A DNA stretch of 21,133 bases, taken from the IMG/VR virus record IMGVR_UViG_3300049732_000079, positions 1-21,133 of that record; one strand, 5' to 3'. The notes beneath the pieces were generated by a model. The model did not search any database. It worked only from the letters and a program-made list of their open reading frames with translations, and was not told the DNA's origin. The DNA comes from a virus. Positions within the stretch are counted from its first letter, which is position 1, and every line of letters begins with the position of its first letter. The translations under genes were made by a program, and so were the position numbers. This document shows, piece by piece, positions 8,777 through 16,172 of this stretch.

Positions 8777-9345
8777 TCACCTCCCTGCGAGCATGCGGCG
8801 CGCCAGGTCGCGCGGGTGGATCACGGTTCGCTGCGGCGCCGAGGGCGTGCCCGGGCGCGGGTAGCGCAGCACCGGCGGGAGTCGTGGCCGCTTCTTCGGG
8901 TCGCTGTGCAGCTGGACCGTGACCCGGATGAGAGCGTCGAGGAGCTCGGCGATCAGGGCGAGGAGCTCCTCGTCGTGTCCCCAATGGTCGCGGCGCGCCT
9001 TGGCGAGGGCGGCCAGCTCGGTGAGGTCGAGCTCGGCGAGAGCGGAGGGGGCTATGCCGGTGACGGCGGCGAGGGCAGCGACGCCTCGGGTGACGTCGCC
9101 GACGTAGGGTCCTCCCCGTTCTCGGATGTCGGGGGGATCATCTCGTCGACGGTGGCCAGCCAGCCGTCGAAACCCTTCGGTCCGCCGGGCATGCCGAGCG
9201 TGACCCACGCCGCGTACAGCGACCCTTCGATGGGGGGCCAGTCGGCGCCCCACTTGCGTTCGGCGGCGACGAGCCCGGCTGCCTTCAGCCGAATCTGTGT
9301 GTGTTCGCCGGCGATGACGAGGGAGATCGCGTTCGTGCCGGCCAT
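8777..9345 (-). CDS. Tail assembly chaperone, frameshifted product (gpGT-like)
   Basis: Predicted fusion of about 189 residues made by a -1 ribosomal frameshift at 9136-9130. The first 72 residues are shared with the short chaperone; the remaining 117 continue in the -1 frame as DIRERGGPYVGDVTRG and then a helical T domain with LAELDLTELAAL and ELLALIAELLDALIRV. The T part has no good start of its own and stops three bases before the tape measure ATG. The G/GT pair made in unequal amounts is a strongly conserved feature of long-tailed phages. Confidence 0.87.
9052..9345 (-). CDS. Tail assembly chaperone, short product (gpG-like)
   Basis: 97 residues, between major tail protein and tape measure, the usual place of the tail assembly chaperones. 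The first part has an alpha/beta body (AISLVIAGEHTQIRLKAAG, ERKWGADWPPIEG). The C-terminal tail after the slippery site is Ser/Pro-rich and low complexity. Like lambda gpG, it probably coats the tape measure protein during tail assembly and is not part of the finished virion. The end is normal termination at TAG; a fraction of ribosomes should shift into the -1 frame to make the longer product. Confidence 0.85.
   Translation of the reverse strand: MAGTNAISLVIAGEHTQIRLKAAGLVAAERKWGADWPPIEGSLYAAWVTLGMPGGPKGFDGWLATVDEMIPPTSENGEDPTSATSPEASLPSPPSPA
9130..9136 (-). promoter_or_regulatory. -1 ribosomal frameshift slippery site
   Basis: The minus strand reads C CCC CCG in the frame of the short chaperone (codons ATC CCC CCG). 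This is an exact X XXY YYZ heptamer that lets both tRNAs re-pair as CCC CCC in the -1 frame. The -1 frame is open across this point and continues into the T domain. Spacing from upstream start and downstream stop fits known tail chaperone frameshift sites. Confidence 0.85.
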
Positions 9346-9926
9346 CAGCTGCCGGCCTCAGCGAACTCGCCGAGGTTGGCGTCGTCGGTCTGGAAGATGA
9401 ACGGCTTCGCCCCGGCGTCGGCGGCGAGGACCTTGACCGAGGTGGAGAGGTTGATCGAGTCCTGCCGGTTGACGACGAACTCGACGCCTTCCTGGTTCAT
9501 CACCTTGCGGTAGCAAAACCGGTAGTTCTGGTCGCCGTCGGCGAACTCGACGATCAACGCGAACTCGTCGACGTCACTCTCATCGGGCGGCTCGTACTCG
9601 TAGTTGCCGGGCGTGCCCTCGGACCAGGTGCCGCCGCCCATCGCGGTGGCGAACGTGTTCTGGTTGAGCTGGCGCGGCACCCAGGCGATGGTCTTCGGGA
9701 TGGCGGTGGGGATGACGCGCAGAGGGTCGAAGCTCTGCCACGCCATGATCTCCTGCACCTCGCGACCGAAGTTGAACGTGACGCCGTCCTCGGTGACGTA
9801 GCCAAGCTCGGTCCACAGCGCATCGTTGACGGCGGTGGAGATGTTGGTCGGGAATGCGGTGCCGACCGGGGCGCGGTAGATGTGCCCGGTGAGACCGACG
9901 ACGACCTCTGACGATTCGAGGCTCAT
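9345..9926 (-). CDS. Major tail protein
   Basis: 193 residues, the likely tube subunit. It starts with SSEVVVGLTGHIYRAPVGTAFP, a pattern common in actinophage tail tube proteins, and is beta-rich throughout, with GYVTEDGVTFNFGREVQEI and YRFCYRKVMNQEGVEF. The strong ribosome-binding site (AAGGAG, seven bases before the ATG) fits high expression. A 52-base gap separates it from the terminator gene. Its stop overlaps the tail chaperone ATG (TGATG). Confidence 0.9.
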   Translation of the reverse strand: MSLESSEVVVGLTGHIYRAPVGTAFPTNISTAVNDALWTELGYVTEDGVTFNFGREVQEIMAWQSFDPLRVIPTAIPKTIAWVPRQLNQNTFATAMGGGTWSEGTPGNYEYEPPDESDVDEFALIVEFADGDQNYRFCYRKVMNQEGVEFVVNRQDSINLSTSVKVLAADAGAKPFIFQTDDANLGEFAEAGS

Positions 9927-11060: not shown

Positions 11061-11717
11061 TCACGACCTGGACGAGACGATGGTGCCGCCGGTGCGGGCG
11101 AAGTGGCGGCGCAGCCGGGCGACCTCGATCTCGTTGAGGAGCAGCCCGTACGGCTGGCCATCGGCCGGGATCGAGTAGGTGACGTTGTACGCGCCGAGCG
11201 CCTCGGATCGGATCCCGGCCGGGTTCTGCATGAACCGCAACCCCGCCGACAGGGCGACCGACTTGACGACGGCGGGCACGGCGTCGGGGCCGGCGGTGTA
11301 GACGACCTCGACCGTCGAGGCGGGGCCGCCCCAGTGGAGCCCGGCTTCCCACCCGGCGCCTTGGATGCCCCAGATCTCCCAGTCGGCCTCGACGTCGATG
11401 GAGTCGAACCCGTTGGCGACCGGGACGCCGCGGCGGATCAGCGACCGTTCGTTCCACGCCCACGCCCCCGCAGCAACCGCGAGACCGTTGAGCGTGACCG
11501 AGTCGACGGCGGTGACCGGTCGGCGTGGCAGGTCGAGGTCACGGGACCAGGTGCCGGCCAGCTTCGAGGTGTGCTCCTCGGCACGGAACGTCTGCCCGGT
11601 GATCCCCTCGATCTCGCCGGAGATCAGGTCGAGCGCGAGCTGCGCTTGGGTGAGCTCGTCGTCGGAGAGGGCGCGGGCGAGGAGCTTCTGGACGTCGAGG
11701 TTCGTGGCGAACGACAT
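11061..11717 (-). CDS. Head-tail connector (adaptor) protein
   Basis: 218 residues. It starts MSFATNLDVQKLLARALSDDE with helical packing typical of gp6/gp15-type adaptors that sit under the portal ring, and has a beta-rich middle and a helical C-terminus. The ATG at 11717 follows GAGGTGAG and overlaps the last glycosyltransferase stop. Position directly before head-closure, gp10-like and tail terminator genes is the main support. Pfam-level family membership cannot be proved by eye. Confidence 0.78.
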   Translation of the reverse strand: MSFATNLDVQKLLARALSDDELTQAQLALDLISGEIEGITGQTFRAEEHTSKLAGTWSRDLDLPRRPVTAVDSVTLNGLAVAAGAWAWNERSLIRRGVPVANGFDSIDVEADWEIWGIQGAGWEAGLHWGGPASTVEVVYTAGPDAVPAVVKSVALSAGLRFMQNPAGIRSEALGAYNVTYSIPADGQPYGLLLNEIEVARLRRHFARTGGTIVSSRS

Positions 11718-12547
11718 CAGCTCACCTCACTCGCGTCGGGGAGCCAGCGGAGCAGCTCGATCTCGTCTGGGTCTCGGGTCTCGTAGACGTGGCGGCGGAA
11801 CCGGATCACCCTGTCGCCGACCTTCACGGTGCGCGACTCGCGGGCGGTGGCGAACCTGACCGGCCGTTCCGGGATCTCTGCCGGTGCCGGGTCGACTCGG
11901 TCGACGAGCGCCTGCATCAGGCGGGGGACGCCGCGGGCGTGCCGGTAGCGGGCGACCAGCTCTTCGGCTTCGGGTGAGCCGCGCAGGTTCGGCGCGGGGT
12001 GCGGATGCCACAGGTGCACGAGAGGAGCGTCGAGGCGGGCCGGCTGACCGGCGAGCGTTTCGAGCGCCCACCCGAACGAGAGATCTTCGCCGCCCCATCC
12101 GAGGTACCGGTCGTCGACGCCGCGCACGTCGTCGAACGCCGAGGCGGCGACGACGGTGATGCCGCCGCCGGCGACTGCCGGGTAGGGAGCACGGATGGTC
12201 GCTCCGAGCCGTGGTTGTGCCCCGGCGAGAACTCTCGACGTCTCCTTCTGGTTGAGCCTGTACACGGTGCGGTGAGGCACCACCCACCCGACAGCACGGG
12301 ATTCGACGAGGTTGATCGCCGCGCGGAGCGTGTCGGCGTCGACGAAGCTGTCCGCGTCGGCGAGCACGAGCACATCGGCGGACGTGCCGGCCCGGGCCGC
12401 CGCGAGCGCTGACCCCTTGGACCACTCCCCTGCACACGAGCCGACGTGGATCGGCCAGCTCTCGTAGCGGCGGCGGACGTGGCCCCAGGCGGCGTCGCGG
12501 TGCGGGCAGTCACCCGTCCGGAACGGGACCAGGATCGACGTCGTCAT
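11717..12547 (-). CDS. Glycosyltransferase 5 (galactosyltransferase-like) with extra C-terminal domain
   Basis: 276 residues. The GT-A part (about 1-215) has VLVLADADSFVDAD with a DxD pair (D64, D66) and YLGWGGEDLSFGWAL at 148-162, the hallmark GWGGED motif of galactosyltransferase C-terminal (Glyco_transf_7C) domains. Residues from about 225 to 276 form a separate beta-rich segment (VRFATARESRTVKVGDRVIRF then YETRDPDEIELLRWL) not needed for a GT-A fold. The ATG at 12547 lies inside the previous gene and has only a poor ribosome-binding site, so coupling is likely. The stop overlaps the connector ATG as TGATG, which ties the cassette into the structural operon. Confidence 0.88.
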   Translation of the reverse strand: MTTSILVPFRTGDCPHRDAAWGHVRRRYESWPIHVGSCAGEWSKGSALAAARAGTSADVLVLADADSFVDADTLRAAINLVESRAVGWVVPHRTVYRLNQKETSRVLAGAQPRLGATIRAPYPAVAGGGITVVAASAFDDVRGVDDRYLGWGGEDLSFGWALETLAGQPARLDAPLVHLWHPHPAPNLRGSPEAEELVARYRHARGVPRLMQALVDRVDPAPAEIPERPVRFATARESRTVKVGDRVIRFRRHVYETRDPDEIELLRWLPDASEVS

Positions 12548-13334
12548 CTCGCCATCGCAGGTAGGGGGCCGGGTCGTGGACGAGCCCGAAGTCGACGGGT
12601 GAGAACGCCCAGAAGTATTGGCGGAACACGTCGTGCAGCGCCTGCTCACCGAACCGGTCGATGAGGGCGTCGTAGCTGCGCCAGTGAGCGCCGAGCGTCT
12701 CGGGCAGGTCGGCGGCCCGGTAGGCGGCTGCGCCGTTGCGGGCCTTGCGCACCATCTGCTCCGGGGAGCGGTACGGAAAGTGGCGCACCTCGAAACCGAG
12801 GTCGACGCTGATGGCGCGGGATGGGAGGTCGACCCCGTGGTTGCCCTGGTGGACGACTGCTCCCGGCTCCCACCGGAAAGCCACCTTCGGGAGCGCACCC
12901 GGTTGGCGTTGCCGCCATTGCATCGAGCGGAACGGATCCGAGTCGTCGGGGTCGATCGCGGTGGCGAAGTGGTTGAACAGCACGGCTGGCACCACGTTGA
13001 CGTCCCGCTCGGCGTTGGCGCAGACGACGCTGATCCGTTCGAGATGGCTGAACCACAATTCGTCGGCGTCGACCGGGACGATCCAGCGGGCACCGTTCGC
13101 TGCGGCGCGCTCGGCGAGAGCGGTCATCTTCTCCGATTGGCGGTAGGCGGGATCCGGGTCGTCGACGACATCAAGGGGCAGGTCGCGGCTCAGGGCGGCG
13201 AGGATGTCGCGGGTACCGTCGGTCGATCCGTTGTCGGCGACGATGAGCTCGTCGACTTCGTCGGCCAGGTGGCGGAGCATCCCGGCGATGACGTCGGCCT
13301 CGTCCTTCACCATCGAGACGGCGAAGGTGGCCAT
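12510..13334 (-). CDS. Glycosyltransferase 4 (GT2 family)
   Basis: 274 residues. It shows a GT2-like start (MATFAVSMVKDEADVIAGML), the sugar-nucleotide segment IVADNGSTDGTRDIL at 31-45 and the metal-binding VDADELW at 88-94, with VRHFPYRSPEQMVRKARNG at 183-201 in the C-terminal half. This layout fits the glycosyl transferase 2_4-type family, which is common in phages and capsule loci. It starts at an ATG overlapping the previous stop (TGATG). Its 3' end overlaps the fifth glycosyltransferase gene by 38 bases. The enzyme is probably cytoplasmic. Confidence 0.87.
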   Translation of the reverse strand: MATFAVSMVKDEADVIAGMLRHLADEVDELIVADNGSTDGTRDILAALSRDLPLDVVDDPDPAYRQSEKMTALAERAAANGARWIVPVDADELWFSHLERISVVCANAERDVNVVPAVLFNHFATAIDPDDSDPFRSMQWRQRQPGALPKVAFRWEPGAVVHQGNHGVDLPSRAISVDLGFEVRHFPYRSPEQMVRKARNGAAAYRAADLPETLGAHWRSYDALIDRFGEQALHDVFRQYFWAFSPVDFGLVHDPAPYLRWRDDDVDPGPVPDG

Positions 13335-14002
13335 CAGTAGCCGACCCCGACCCGGTCGCGGCCGATGTGGTGGATCCACTCGCCCGAATCGCGGGCACCC
13401 CAGAAGCCGAAGCGGAGCTCGGGATCGTCGAGGAGCTGGTGCGTGAACCGGCCTTCCGACTCGGGGCCCTGCGGCCAGTCGTAGAGCCACGGCAGGGACG
13501 CTCGGAACAGGCTCGGGTTCGTCGTCCAGAAGCGGCGATGCTCCAACCACACGTGCTGCCCGTCGGAGCGCTCGCAGTAGTCGCCGGGGTGTTGCTCGAC
13601 GATGCCGCCGGCGGCGCGCTCGGCGTCGTTCCACGGCTGGCGGCGGAGCGCGAGCTGCGCCAGGTGCCGGTTGGCGTCGAGCACGTGGGCGAGGTCGTCG
13701 AGGTTGACGGGCCGGTTGTAGGTGAAGTCGTCCTCGACGCAGAACACGTGGCTCTCGGCGAGATCGCAGAGGAGCCGCCAGGCGTGGCGGTACGCGCCGG
13801 CGAACCCTGCTCGCGTCCGGGTGGCCCACAAGTGCCAGGCCGGGAACCGGGCGCGGAGCCACGTGTGGTAGTCGCCGTCTGCGGAGTCGTCGTGGATGAC
13901 GCCGGCGGCGATGTCGCCGGTGATCTGCTCCTCAAGGGACGGGATGGCTCGGGCGATGCAGTCGCGTCGGCCGTCCGTCATGACGATGACGGCGATGCTC
14001 AC
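13334..14002 (-). CDS. Glycosyltransferase 3 (actinophage type)
   Basis: 222 residues. The N-terminus MSIAVIVMTDGRRDCI is followed by VFCVEDDFTYNRPVNL with an acidic triad (E90, D91, D92) at the expected DxD position, then QLALRRQPWNDAERAAGG and a C-terminal block with WLEHRRFWTTNPSL and SGEWIHHIG. I recognise this combination from putative glycosyltransferases of actinobacterial phages; no substrate is known to me. The GTG start overlaps the previous stop as GTGA, and its own stop overlaps the next ATG as TGATG, so translation is probably coupled. Confidence 0.78.
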   Translation of the reverse strand: MSIAVIVMTDGRRDCIARAIPSLEEQITGDIAAGVIHDDSADGDYHTWLRARFPAWHLWATRTRAGFAGAYRHAWRLLCDLAESHVFCVEDDFTYNRPVNLDDLAHVLDANRHLAQLALRRQPWNDAERAAGGIVEQHPGDYCERSDGQHVWLEHRRFWTTNPSLFRASLPWLYDWPQGPESEGRFTHQLLDDPELRFGFWGARDSGEWIHHIGRDRVGVGY

Positions 14003-14553
14003 GCGGCGTCGCCTTCGGTGCGGCAGGCGTGGCCACGCCGGTAGGTCCACGTGATCCGGTCGGTCCAAGCGAAGCGGGCGCCCTGGTCGGCCATCCGGTT
14101 CCACAGCTCCCAGTCCTCGTACCGCTCGTCTGCCCGGAACGAGCCTGCGTCGACGATCGCCGACCAGCGGGTGGCGACGGTGATCGGGAAGATCCCGTGC
14201 CGACGGAGGGTCTCGCGCTGGTAGCGCCGGTTGAAGTACTTCGCCGGGAGCGGAGGCCCTTCGAAGCGGCACCACGAGTAGACGACGTCAGCGCGCTCAC
14301 GCTGAGCGAGGTCGAGGAGGACCTCGAGGTGATCCGGATCGAGGAGATCGTCGTCGTCGAGGAACGCGACCCACTCGGTGCGGGTCACCTTCAGCAGCTG
14401 GTCACGTATCAGGGCGGGCCCGCGGCCAGAATGGTCCACCGCAATCATATGATCGGCCGGTGGGTGGGTCTGGGCGTTCACGGAGGCGACCGCCTCGGCG
14501 AGCATCACTGCCCGTTCCGGCAGCGACGGGGTGATGACAGTCACGTCCGCCAC
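13999..14553 (-). CDS. Glycosyltransferase 2 (GT2 family)
   Basis: 184 residues, a compact GT2-type enzyme. It starts MADVTVITPSLPERAVMLAE, has the acidic cluster FLDDDDLLDPDH (D66-D69) for metal and nucleotide-sugar binding, and YEDWELW at 145-151, which fits the ED catalytic-base motif of the GT-A fold. The GTG start at 14553 has GGAGG nine bases upstream and overlaps the first glycosyltransferase gene by 13 bases. An upstream extension of the frame lies inside the first glycosyltransferase gene and reads as shadow sequence. At 184 residues it is short for the family, leaving little room for a separate acceptor domain. Confidence 0.88.
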   Translation of the reverse strand: MADVTVITPSLPERAVMLAEAVASVNAQTHPPADHMIAVDHSGRGPALIRDQLLKVTRTEWVAFLDDDDLLDPDHLEVLLDLAQRERADVVYSWCRFEGPPLPAKYFNRRYQRETLRRHGIFPITVATRWSAIVDAGSFRADERYEDWELWNRMADQGARFAWTDRITWTYRRGHACRTEGDAA

Positions 14554-15206
14554 AAGTGCTGCCTCCGCCAGTAGATCTTGCGGCCGAGCCGCATCCGGGC
14601 ATGCTGCTGCTCGTACAGCGGATCGGTCGGTGCCTTGCCCCAATTGGGATGGAGGTGCTCGACGATCGACGTGAGACACGGCCGGAACGCCCGACGGGAC
14701 ATTGCGGTCTGGACGAACTCGTCGTCGACGTACTCGTGCGGGTAGCCCTCGTGCAGGATCTTGCCCGGTTCGTCGATGGTGCCCCACCGCTCGACGTACG
14801 AGCGGCGCACGAGACTGTGCGTCGAATGCTGACCGGCGACGACTCTGGCGTTGCCGAGGTCGTTGGTGCCCACCACACCGACCGTCTCGTCGGCCATCAC
14901 AGCGAGCGCTTCTGTGAGCCAGCCGGGATGGAAGTGCAAATCGTCGGCGGCGAGGAACAGGAACGGTTCGATGCTGTCCCGGTAGGCGGCGTTGACCTTG
15001 CGGGCGTAGTCGCCGCGCGGGTTCGGCGCGACCACCATCCGATGCGCCCCCGTCGCGGCGACCGCTGCGAACTCGTCGCCGTCACCGCGGGTGAGCACGA
15101 ACAGCACCCGATGCGCCTCGGGGGTGGCCGCGTCGATTGAGGCCAGCAGCGGGGCGACCCTGTGCGGCCGGTGCAGGACCGGCACGACGATGAGGGTCGC
15201 CCCCAC
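14541..15206 (-). CDS. Glycosyltransferase 1 (GT-A type)
   Basis: 221 residues, the first of five consecutive glycosyltransferase genes. The N-terminus GATLIVVPVLHRPHRV begins a Rossmann-like nucleotide-sugar fold. FLFLAADDLHFHPGW at 83-96 carries the DxD-like metal site (D88, D89); YVDDEFV at 159-165 and VEHLHPNWGKA at 182-192 are likely catalytic or substrate-binding elements. No signal peptide or membrane segment is seen, so it should act in the cytoplasm, probably on virion proteins. The GTG start lies six bases after the capsid stop and has only a weak ribosome-binding site, so reinitiation after capsid translation is likely. The sugar donor cannot be told from sequence. Confidence 0.85.
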   Translation of the reverse strand: MGATLIVVPVLHRPHRVAPLLASIDAATPEAHRVLFVLTRGDGDEFAAVAATGAHRMVVAPNPRGDYARKVNAAYRDSIEPFLFLAADDLHFHPGWLTEALAVMADETVGVVGTNDLGNARVVAGQHSTHSLVRRSYVERWGTIDEPGKILHEGYPHEYVDDEFVQTAMSRRAFRPCLTSIVEHLHPNWGKAPTDPLYEQQHARMRLGRKIYWRRQHLWRT

Positions 15207-15212
15207 TGGTGG

Positions 15213-16172
15213 TCAGCTGGCCTGGAACGGCTCGAGGAACGCGAACGGGTAGCGCGTCGCCGCGTTCGTGTTCACGAGGTTGATCGGGTTGGGCAGCGCC
15301 CATCCGACCCGGAACACGACCCGCAGCGCGACCATGTCCTGCTGCGCCAGGTTGTAGACGATGGCGCCGTTGCCGTCCTGGATGACCGCCTCGGTGAGCA
15401 CCTTGAAGGTGACGTCCTGACGGACCGCCCACACGAGCTGGCTCCAGTCGCCGGAGATAAGCAGCGCCCGCGACGGATCGATGGCGCCGTTGCGGGGGAA
15501 GACGAGCTGCTCGCCGTCGAGCGCGTACTGGGCGGCGTCCTGCAGGTTGGCCAGGAAGATCGGCCGGTTGTCGGCGTCCTTCAGGCCGCGCAGCTTGGCG
15601 CGCAGCGAGAGCGCGGCGACGTGGCCGTTCACCATGTAGCCGTCCTCTTCGACCTTCGCGATGACGCCGTTCTCGGCGAAGATGTCGTCGTAAAGGTCCG
15701 AGTACGACACATTGAGGGTCACCTCGTGGCCGGCGGCCTCGGCGGCCTCGAGTACACACTCCGGCCAGGAGGCCGGGGCGTTGATCCCGTAGAGGACGGC
15801 CTGGTCGAACGCCTTGCCGATCGCCGACACGATGGCGGGGCGAGCCTCGCCGAAGATGTCGTAGTCGGCGTCGTCGAGGACGGCCTCGGGGATCGGCACG
15901 ATCACCGCGAGCTCCTCGGCGTTCAGGTACACGTTGTCCCAGGAGACGTCGGTGGTCTGCTTGAGCCCGGTGTCACCGTCGACGAAGTAGGCGGTGGGCA
16001 GGCTCGACCAGACCGGCATCCGGCGCTGCTTGCGAGTCATGTCCTGGAGGCGTCGGCCGAGGGTCATCACGGCCGAGTCGCGGGCGACCTCGCCCAGGAT
16101 CTCGCGCGTGACGTCCTCCGGCATGAGCGCCTGGGCTTCGGTGCGGCTGATGGCCGCGTCGTAGGTAGCCAT
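15213..16172 (-). CDS. Major capsid protein (HK97-like fold, putative)
   Basis: 319 residues, following the scaffold gene, with a strong ribosome-binding site (AAGGAG six bases before the ATG) as expected for the most abundant virion protein. The N-terminus is short, with MPEDVTREILGEVARDS leading into a helix and the segment RMPVWSSLPTAYFVDGDTG, which resembles the N-arm and P-domain start of actinophage HK97-fold capsids. The C-terminus ends in NAATRYPFAFLEPFQAS. There is no large N-terminal delta domain, in line with a separate scaffold gene. The likely role is building the icosahedral shell; it is also a plausible acceptor for the adjacent glycosyltransferases. Confidence 0.9.
   Translation of the reverse strand: MATYDAAISRTEAQALMPEDVTREILGEVARDSAVMTLGRRLQDMTRKQRRMPVWSSLPTAYFVDGDTGLKQTTDVSWDNVYLNAEELAVIVPIPEAVLDDADYDIFGEARPAIVSAIGKAFDQAVLYGINAPASWPECVLEAAEAAGHEVTLNVSYSDLYDDIFAENGVIAKVEEDGYMVNGHVAALSLRAKLRGLKDADNRPIFLANLQDAAQYALDGEQLVFPRNGAIDPSRALLISGDWSQLVWAVRQDVTFKVLTEAVIQDGNGAIVYNLAQQDMVALRVVFRVGWALPNPINLVNTNAATRYPFAFLEPFQAS

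What the first reader, a model, noticed from the sequence alone, without database searches (positions are those of the whole stretch)
11717..15206. Five consecutive glycosyltransferase genes inserted between capsid and connector genes
Five different GT-A type enzymes, each with its own DxD-like or acidic site, occupy 3.5 kb exactly where a connector gene would normally follow the capsid gene. Junctions are overlapping or only six bases apart, and the last stop overlaps the connector start, so they are expressed with virion genes. Glycosylated virions are reported for some mycobacteriophages. Five enzymes suggest a multi-sugar structure, possibly built stepwise on capsid or tail proteins, which could affect immune recognition, host binding or stability.
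Basis: partly seen in the sequence, partly recalled or inferred. Interest (0 to 1): 0.75.

Follow-up and report, generated by a model that had tools for sequence, protein, structure and literature searches.

The report
Five-gene phage virion glycosylation cassette
Between its capsid gene and its head-tail connector gene this uncultivated actinobacterial phage carries five sugar-adding enzyme genes; the same block recurs in many unrelated phages, and its last enzyme goes hand in hand with a serine at the very end of the capsid and tail-tube proteins, which points to that serine as the place where the sugars are attached.

Summary
Five genes on the minus strand (15206 to 11717) lie between the major capsid protein (MCP) and the head-tail adaptor, with gaps of 6 to -38 nt. 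All five are glycosyltransferases (GTs); a confident fold confirms GT3, which Pfam misses. The block is not peculiar to this contig. A homologous GT1-GT5 series, same order, occurs in more than 20 other contigs and in a Parafrankia soli prophage, beside at least five unrelated MCP families, always among head genes where context is readable. New here: the likely acceptor. In the window only the MCP (..FQAS) and the major tail protein (MTP, ..EAGS) end in Ala/Gly-Ser. Across four MCP families, loci with the GT5 family have a Ser-terminated MCP in 41 of 43 cases (57 of 193 without GT5 in the locus). Che8, reported to carry glycans on its capsid, has GT5 (gp109), and both its MCP and MTP end in Gly-Ser. 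Best explanation: GT5, with a polypeptide GalNAc-transferase/beta-1,4-galactosyltransferase-like fold, starts an O-glycan on the C-terminal Ser of MCP and MTP; GT1-GT4 extend it. New variant of a known kind.

The parts
15213..16172 (-). Major capsid protein (HK97 fold, phrog_10), 319 aa, ends ..LEPFQAS; terminal Ser is the predicted glycan acceptor (codon 15216-15218)
   Evidence: PF05065 3e-30, phrog_10 7e-47; C-terminus
14541..15206 (-). GT1, 221 aa, GT-A family 2-like; most widely conserved cassette member, used as tracer
   Evidence: PF00535 7e-6; 33 viral loci and 4 bacterial-genome loci
13999..14544 (-). GT2, 181 aa, family 2 GT; least conserved member (25-32% identity between most lineages)
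   Evidence: PF00535 2.5e-13, phrog_14775 4e-27
13334..14002 (-). GT3, 222 aa, GT-A fold, phrog_3047 'galactosyl transferase'
   Evidence: phrog_3047 1.6e-15; AF2 pLDDT 94, Foldseek TarP/SpsA E 7e-8
12510..13334 (-). GT4, 274 aa, Glyco_tranf_2_4; profile matches GmaR (flagellin glycosyltransferase, by my own knowledge)
   Evidence: PF13704 2e-13; PDB 22ao GmaR 6e-7
11717..12547 (-). GT5, 276 aa, Glyco_transf_7C; proposed initiating enzyme acting on C-terminal Ser; conserved DAD (64-66), G152-x-E-D155, H178/H181
   Evidence: PF02709 6e-7, phrog_1721, alignment A7, AF2 pLDDT 95, Foldseek beta-1,4-GalT / ppGalNAc-T
11061..11717 (-). Head-tail adaptor that follows the cassette
   Evidence: phrog_442 2e-19, phrog_137 3e-13
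9345..9926 (-). Major tail (tube) protein, 193 aa, ends ..FAEAGS; terminal Ser is the second predicted acceptor (codon 9348-9350)
   Evidence: tblastn to annotated major tail proteins; C-terminus

Best explanation
The five genes are a virion protein O-glycosylation cassette. GT5, a soluble GT with a polypeptide GalNAc-transferase / beta-1,4-galactosyltransferase-like fold, transfers the first sugar from a host nucleotide sugar to the hydroxyl of the C-terminal Ser of the capsid protein and the tail-tube protein in the cytoplasm. GT1-GT4 then add further sugars in sequence, so that many identical chains cover head and tail. Shown here: genes, order, folds, conservation, link of GT5 to terminal Ser. 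Inferred: transfer itself, GT5 as the initiator, order of the other steps, sugars, benefit.
For: Same-order cassette beside at least five unrelated MCP families (phrog_10, 283, 1328, 777, 133/4523) in head gene clusters. Among the window genes and open reading frames whose C-termini were listed, only MCP and MTP end in (A/G)S. Full-cassette phages end MCP and, where found, MTP in Ser even when those proteins are unrelated. Systematic test in four MCP families: GT5-positive loci 41/43 Ser-terminated, GT5-negative 57/193; all loci with GT5 as the only cassette member are Ser-terminated; about 23 separate GT5-positive clades, 22 with Ser. Che8 is reported to carry glycans on its capsid (PMC11256854), and glycans at the C-termini of capsid and tail tube are reported for mycobacteriophages (PMC12619734); Che8 encodes a GT5 homologue (gp109), its MCP ends KTGS and its MTP SDGS. 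Firecracker, Raela, Brujita, prophiGD91-2 and GMA2 show the same pairing. No transmembrane segment in any of the five GTs.
Against: No mass data. L108 and L110 have GT1, GT2 and GT5 but MCP ends ASV/GSA. Baka MCP (..APSF) and Kudefre MCP (..DTSA) do not end in Ser although their tail proteins do. Many GT5-negative loci in phrog_283 and phrog_1328 also have Ser-terminated MCPs (44 of 82), so Ser alone is not diagnostic; GTs may lie elsewhere in those genomes. Related sequences inflate the counts. GT5 resembles sugar-to-sugar beta-1,4-GalT as much as polypeptide GTs; GT4 (GmaR-like) could be the initiator.
Confidence: 0.74

Rival explanations
1. The cassette glycosylates virion proteins, but at other sites (internal Ser/Thr, decoration or fibre proteins), or GT4 or GT2 starts the chain; the terminal Ser is a by-product of relatedness or of capsid C-terminal composition.
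For: GT4 profile hits GmaR at 6e-7; Ser-terminated MCPs are common without GT5 in two MCP families.
Against: The Ser link recurs in about 22 of 23 separate GT5-positive clades, in unrelated MCPs and in MTP; loci with GT5 alone are all Ser-terminated.
Confidence: 0.15
2. The enzymes modify the host cell surface (receptor masking, superinfection exclusion), as in serotype-converting phages.
For: Phage GTs often do this; GT3 folds like TarP, a wall teichoic acid GT; some relatives are prophages (L121).
Against: No transmembrane segment and no flippase or Gtr partner seen among the window genes; location in the head operon in unrelated phages; does not explain the terminal Ser link.
Confidence: 0.06
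3. The enzymes glycosylate hypermodified phage DNA.
For: Phage GTs that glycosylate DNA are known (paper cited in PMC12619734).
Against: No thymidylate synthase / hydroxymethylase family (PF00303) match in ten cassette-related contigs, including ones of 64 and 103 kb (contigs may be incomplete); cassette tied to head genes, not replication genes.
Confidence: 0.03

Closest known systems
Virion glycosylation of mycobacteriophage Che8 (Freeman et al. 2023; primary paper not held, read through PMC12619734, PMC11256854, PMC11652166)
   Same: Phage-encoded GTs; GT5-family member (gp109) and GT2-like gp108; glycans reported at capsid and tail-tube C-termini; Che8 MCP and MTP end in GS
   Different: Che8 GTs lie at the right genome end, three genes, none a clear GT1, GT3 or GT4; different MCP
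Cluster J mycobacteriophage Baka
   Same: GTs gp14, gp16 (GT5 family), gp20 plus methyltransferase between MCP gp10 and adaptor gp22: the same slot
   Different: Other enzymes in other order; MCP does not end in Ser
Corndog / Firecracker (cluster O)
   Same: GTs incl. GT5 family (gp35) plus O-methyltransferase within head genes; MCP ..VGS, MTP ..GDS; authors suspected capsid glycosylation (PMC4351075)
   Different: Placed between portal and protease; no GT1, GT3 or GT4 match
Caudovirales GX15bay
   Same: Adjacent GT3 and GT4 homologues, 40-41%
   Different: GT cluster lies before terminase; no GT1 or GT5 match found

Membership tests
Phage virion protein O-glycosylation systems (Che8/Corndog kind) | Phage-encoded GTs | tested here: met
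Phage virion protein O-glycosylation systems (Che8/Corndog kind) | Shares an enzyme family with a phage reported to be glycosylated | tested here: met
   GT5 profile hits Che8 gp109 (1e-16) and Firecracker gp35 (5e-19)
Phage virion protein O-glycosylation systems (Che8/Corndog kind) | Hydroxyl residue at the C-termini of capsid and tail tube | tested here: met
   MCP ..FQAS, MTP ..EAGS
Phage virion protein O-glycosylation systems (Che8/Corndog kind) | Covalent glycan on purified virions | not testable with these tools
   Needs mass spectrometry
GT-A fold glycosyltransferases | GT-A fold with DxD-like metal site | tested here: met
   GT3 and GT5 by model, GT1, GT2, GT4 by Pfam; conserved D64/D66 and H178/H181 in GT5
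GtrABC serotype conversion | Membrane flippase and membrane-anchored GT | tested here: not met
   No transmembrane segment in the five GTs, no flippase seen in the 21-kb window
DNA hypermodification | Modified-base synthase (PF00303) in the genome | tested here: not met
   0 of 10 contigs; contigs may be incomplete

The most novel reading that the evidence does not exclude
GT5 is the founding enzyme of a tag-directed protein glycosylation: it reads little more than a free C-terminal Ser, regardless of the protein fold, so any virion protein gains a glycan by acquiring a terminal Ser, and the five-gene cassette moves between unrelated phages as a portable coat-glycan module.
Probability: 0.4. 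Interest if true: 0.82.

Novelty: new variant of a known kind. Interest (0 to 1): 0.64.

Why it matters
Virion glycosylation of phages was reported for a few mycobacteriophages. Here a larger, order-conserved five-enzyme module is found in at least five capsid lineages, including a prophage of Parafrankia, and a simple sequence sign (GT5 family plus terminal Ser on MCP and MTP) predicts which phages are glycosylated and where. That makes substrate recognition, chain building and purpose directly testable.

Tried and rejected
A pooled Fisher test within the phrog_10 MCP family (10/10 vs 5/53, p 2e-8) was not relied on: the tree shows those ten MCPs form a single clade. It was replaced by tests in three further MCP families and by clade counts. 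GT1 and GT5 tblastn against cultured phages finds no or only remote relatives, so cultured phages alone would have missed the cassette. GT1 relatives in bacterial MAGs (L123, L124): L123 lies among host metabolic genes, so a cellular origin of the family is possible but was not pursued. L071 and L083 (Ser-terminated, no GT5): L071 has one other family 2 GT, L083 none. NCBIfam gives only weak, below-cut-off GT hits. Corndog, Bxb1 and TM4 records were not retrievable under the accessions tried. A search of the held papers for the C-terminal serine link found nothing, but the primary 2023 paper is not held and may describe it.

Full report
Observation. The window is a 21,133-base IMG/VR viral contig. 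Its genes run on the minus strand: terminase, portal, MuF-like protein, scaffold, major capsid protein (MCP, 15213-16172), five genes at 15206-11717, head-tail adaptor (11061-11717), other connector genes, major tail protein (MTP, 9345-9926), tape measure. The five genes are tightly packed: a 6-nt gap after MCP, then overlaps of 4, 4, 1 and 38 nt, and a 1-nt overlap with the adaptor. GT1, GT2, GT4 and GT5 match Pfam glycosyltransferase (GT) families; GT3 matches only a PHROG family. High-confidence models of GT3 (pLDDT 94) and GT5 (pLDDT 95) match GT-A enzymes: GT3 TarP and SpsA, GT5 chondroitin synthase, beta-1,4-galactosyltransferase and polypeptide GalNAc-transferases.

Conservation. Another contig (L005) has the same block at 100% protein identity. 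Profile searches found the series GT1-GT2-GT3-GT4-GT5 in the same order in more than 20 distinct contigs, some with additional genes interposed. In the clade of the window (L007, L008, L012, L091, L095, L114 and others) it lies between MCP and adaptor. In a second group it lies after the adaptor (L106, L109 with a variant set, and the prophage of Parafrankia soli, L121). In phages of 64 and 103 kb (L101, L103) it lies just before an MCP of phrog_777; in a 172-kb contig (L097) it lies near a fused protease/MCP of phrog_133/4523 and a tape measure gene. GT1 and GT4 are mostly 50-64% identical to the window's, and GT3 mostly 44-60%, where the MCP is not even detectable as a relative. The cassette is therefore inherited partly independently of the capsid gene, yet keeps its place among head genes. 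Variants contain methyltransferases (L109, L106). The closest MCP relative without the cassette, L009, has in the same slot a methyltransferase-domain protein and a CDP-glycerol-transferase-like protein.

Acceptor. Comparing C-termini revealed that MCP and MTP of cassette phages end in Ser: window ..FQAS and ..EAGS; L007 ..AAAS and ..GHAS; L012 ..VGAS and ..PVAS; L095 ..ANAS and ..PAAS. Unrelated MCPs of other cassette phages do the same: phrog_283 (..HGS..AGS..QGS..EGS), phrog_1328 (..NTTGS), phrog_777 (..VGS..CPS), phrog_133/4523 (..VEGS). In the window, among the genes and open reading frames whose ends were listed, only MCP and MTP end in (A/G)S.

Control. Relatives of three further MCP families were fetched and every locus scored for the GT5 family and the last MCP residue. 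GT5-positive: phrog_10 7/9, phrog_1328 8/8, phrog_283 17/17, phrog_777 9/9 Ser-terminated, 41/43 in all. GT5-negative in the locus: 9/59, 11/18, 33/64, 4/52, 57/193 in all (three of the phrog_10 negatives are cassettes cut by a contig end). Loci where GT5 is the only cassette member are all Ser-terminated. On MCP trees the GT5-positive loci form about 23 separate clades, 22 of them with Ser (here the three cut cassettes were counted as positive). Terminal Ser is common in phrog_283 and phrog_1328 even without a nearby GT5, so the rule runs from GT5 to Ser, not back; GTs elsewhere in the genome, as in Che8, could explain part of this.

Link to known biology. GT5-family members occur in Che8 (gp109), Firecracker (gp35), prophiGD91-2, Kudefre and Frankenweenie; a tblastn with Che8 gp109 finds 176 phage records. 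Che8 MCP ends KTGS and MTP SDGS; Firecracker LVGS and KGDS; prophiGD91-2 SSGS and EEAS; Raela PQGS and FGGS; Brujita ETAS and EAGS; GMA2 has three structural-region proteins ending TGS. Controls without a known GT5: Giles MCP ..IVTP, Muddy MCP ..ESE and MTP ..EGE, Eileen MCP ..LIF but MTP ..AGS. Published statements held here: glycans at the C-termini of capsid and tail tube in mycobacteriophages (PMC12619734), Che8 capsid glycans (PMC11256854), O-glycosylated capsid or tail or both (PMC11652166). The primary paper is not held.

Mechanism. GT5 is the most likely initiator because it is the member shared with the other GT-bearing phages, is sufficient for the Ser link, has the fold of polypeptide GalNAc-transferases and beta-1,4-galactosyltransferases, and keeps the metal and catalytic residues (DAD, GWGxED, HLWH). 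GT4, whose profile matches GmaR, is the alternative. GT1, GT3 and GT4, the most conserved members between lineages, would then build a common chain. None of the GTs has a membrane segment, which fits action on cytoplasmic virion proteins. DNA glycosylation is disfavoured by absence of PF00303 in ten contigs, wall modification by location and by the Ser link.

Verdict. Real, conserved, most likely a virion glycosylation cassette; new variant of a known kind. No claim on immune effects is made.

Noticed in passing
L009:4093-6368: Closest cassette-free MCP relative fills the same slot with a methyltransferase-domain protein and a PF04464 CDP-glycerol-transferase-like protein; its MCP ends ..GSGS and its MTP ..GSGS, a different shared tail.
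   Followed up: partly
L108 and L110: Partial cassettes (GT1, GT2, GT5 only) with MCP ending ASV and GSA; the only clade that breaks the GT5-Ser rule in the systematic test.
   Followed up: partly
L134:15295-18366 (Gordonia phage GMA2 orf16-18): Three consecutive structural-region proteins all end in ..TGS, next to a GT5 family gene (orf22) and a methyltransferase (orf21).
   Followed up: no
L137 (Mycobacterium phage Muddy MCP and MTP): MCP and MTP of this phage both end in similar acidic Gly-Glu tails (..GEGEGESE and ..GEGEGEGE), another case of matching C-termini on the two main virion proteins.
   Followed up: no
L123:9977-14709: GT1 relative inside a 945-aa multi-domain GT of an Actinomycetota MAG, among host metabolic genes; possible cellular source of the family.
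   Followed up: partly
L132:10159-15376 (Baka gp12-gp20): Capsid-adaptor gap holds a gene annotated as serine/threonine kinase, a methyltransferase, three GTs and unknown genes.
   Followed up: no
L002:6336-17480 (GX15bay): Several GT genes with endoglucanase, mannanase and a methyltransferase upstream of terminase, including neighbours homologous to GT3 and GT4.
   Followed up: no
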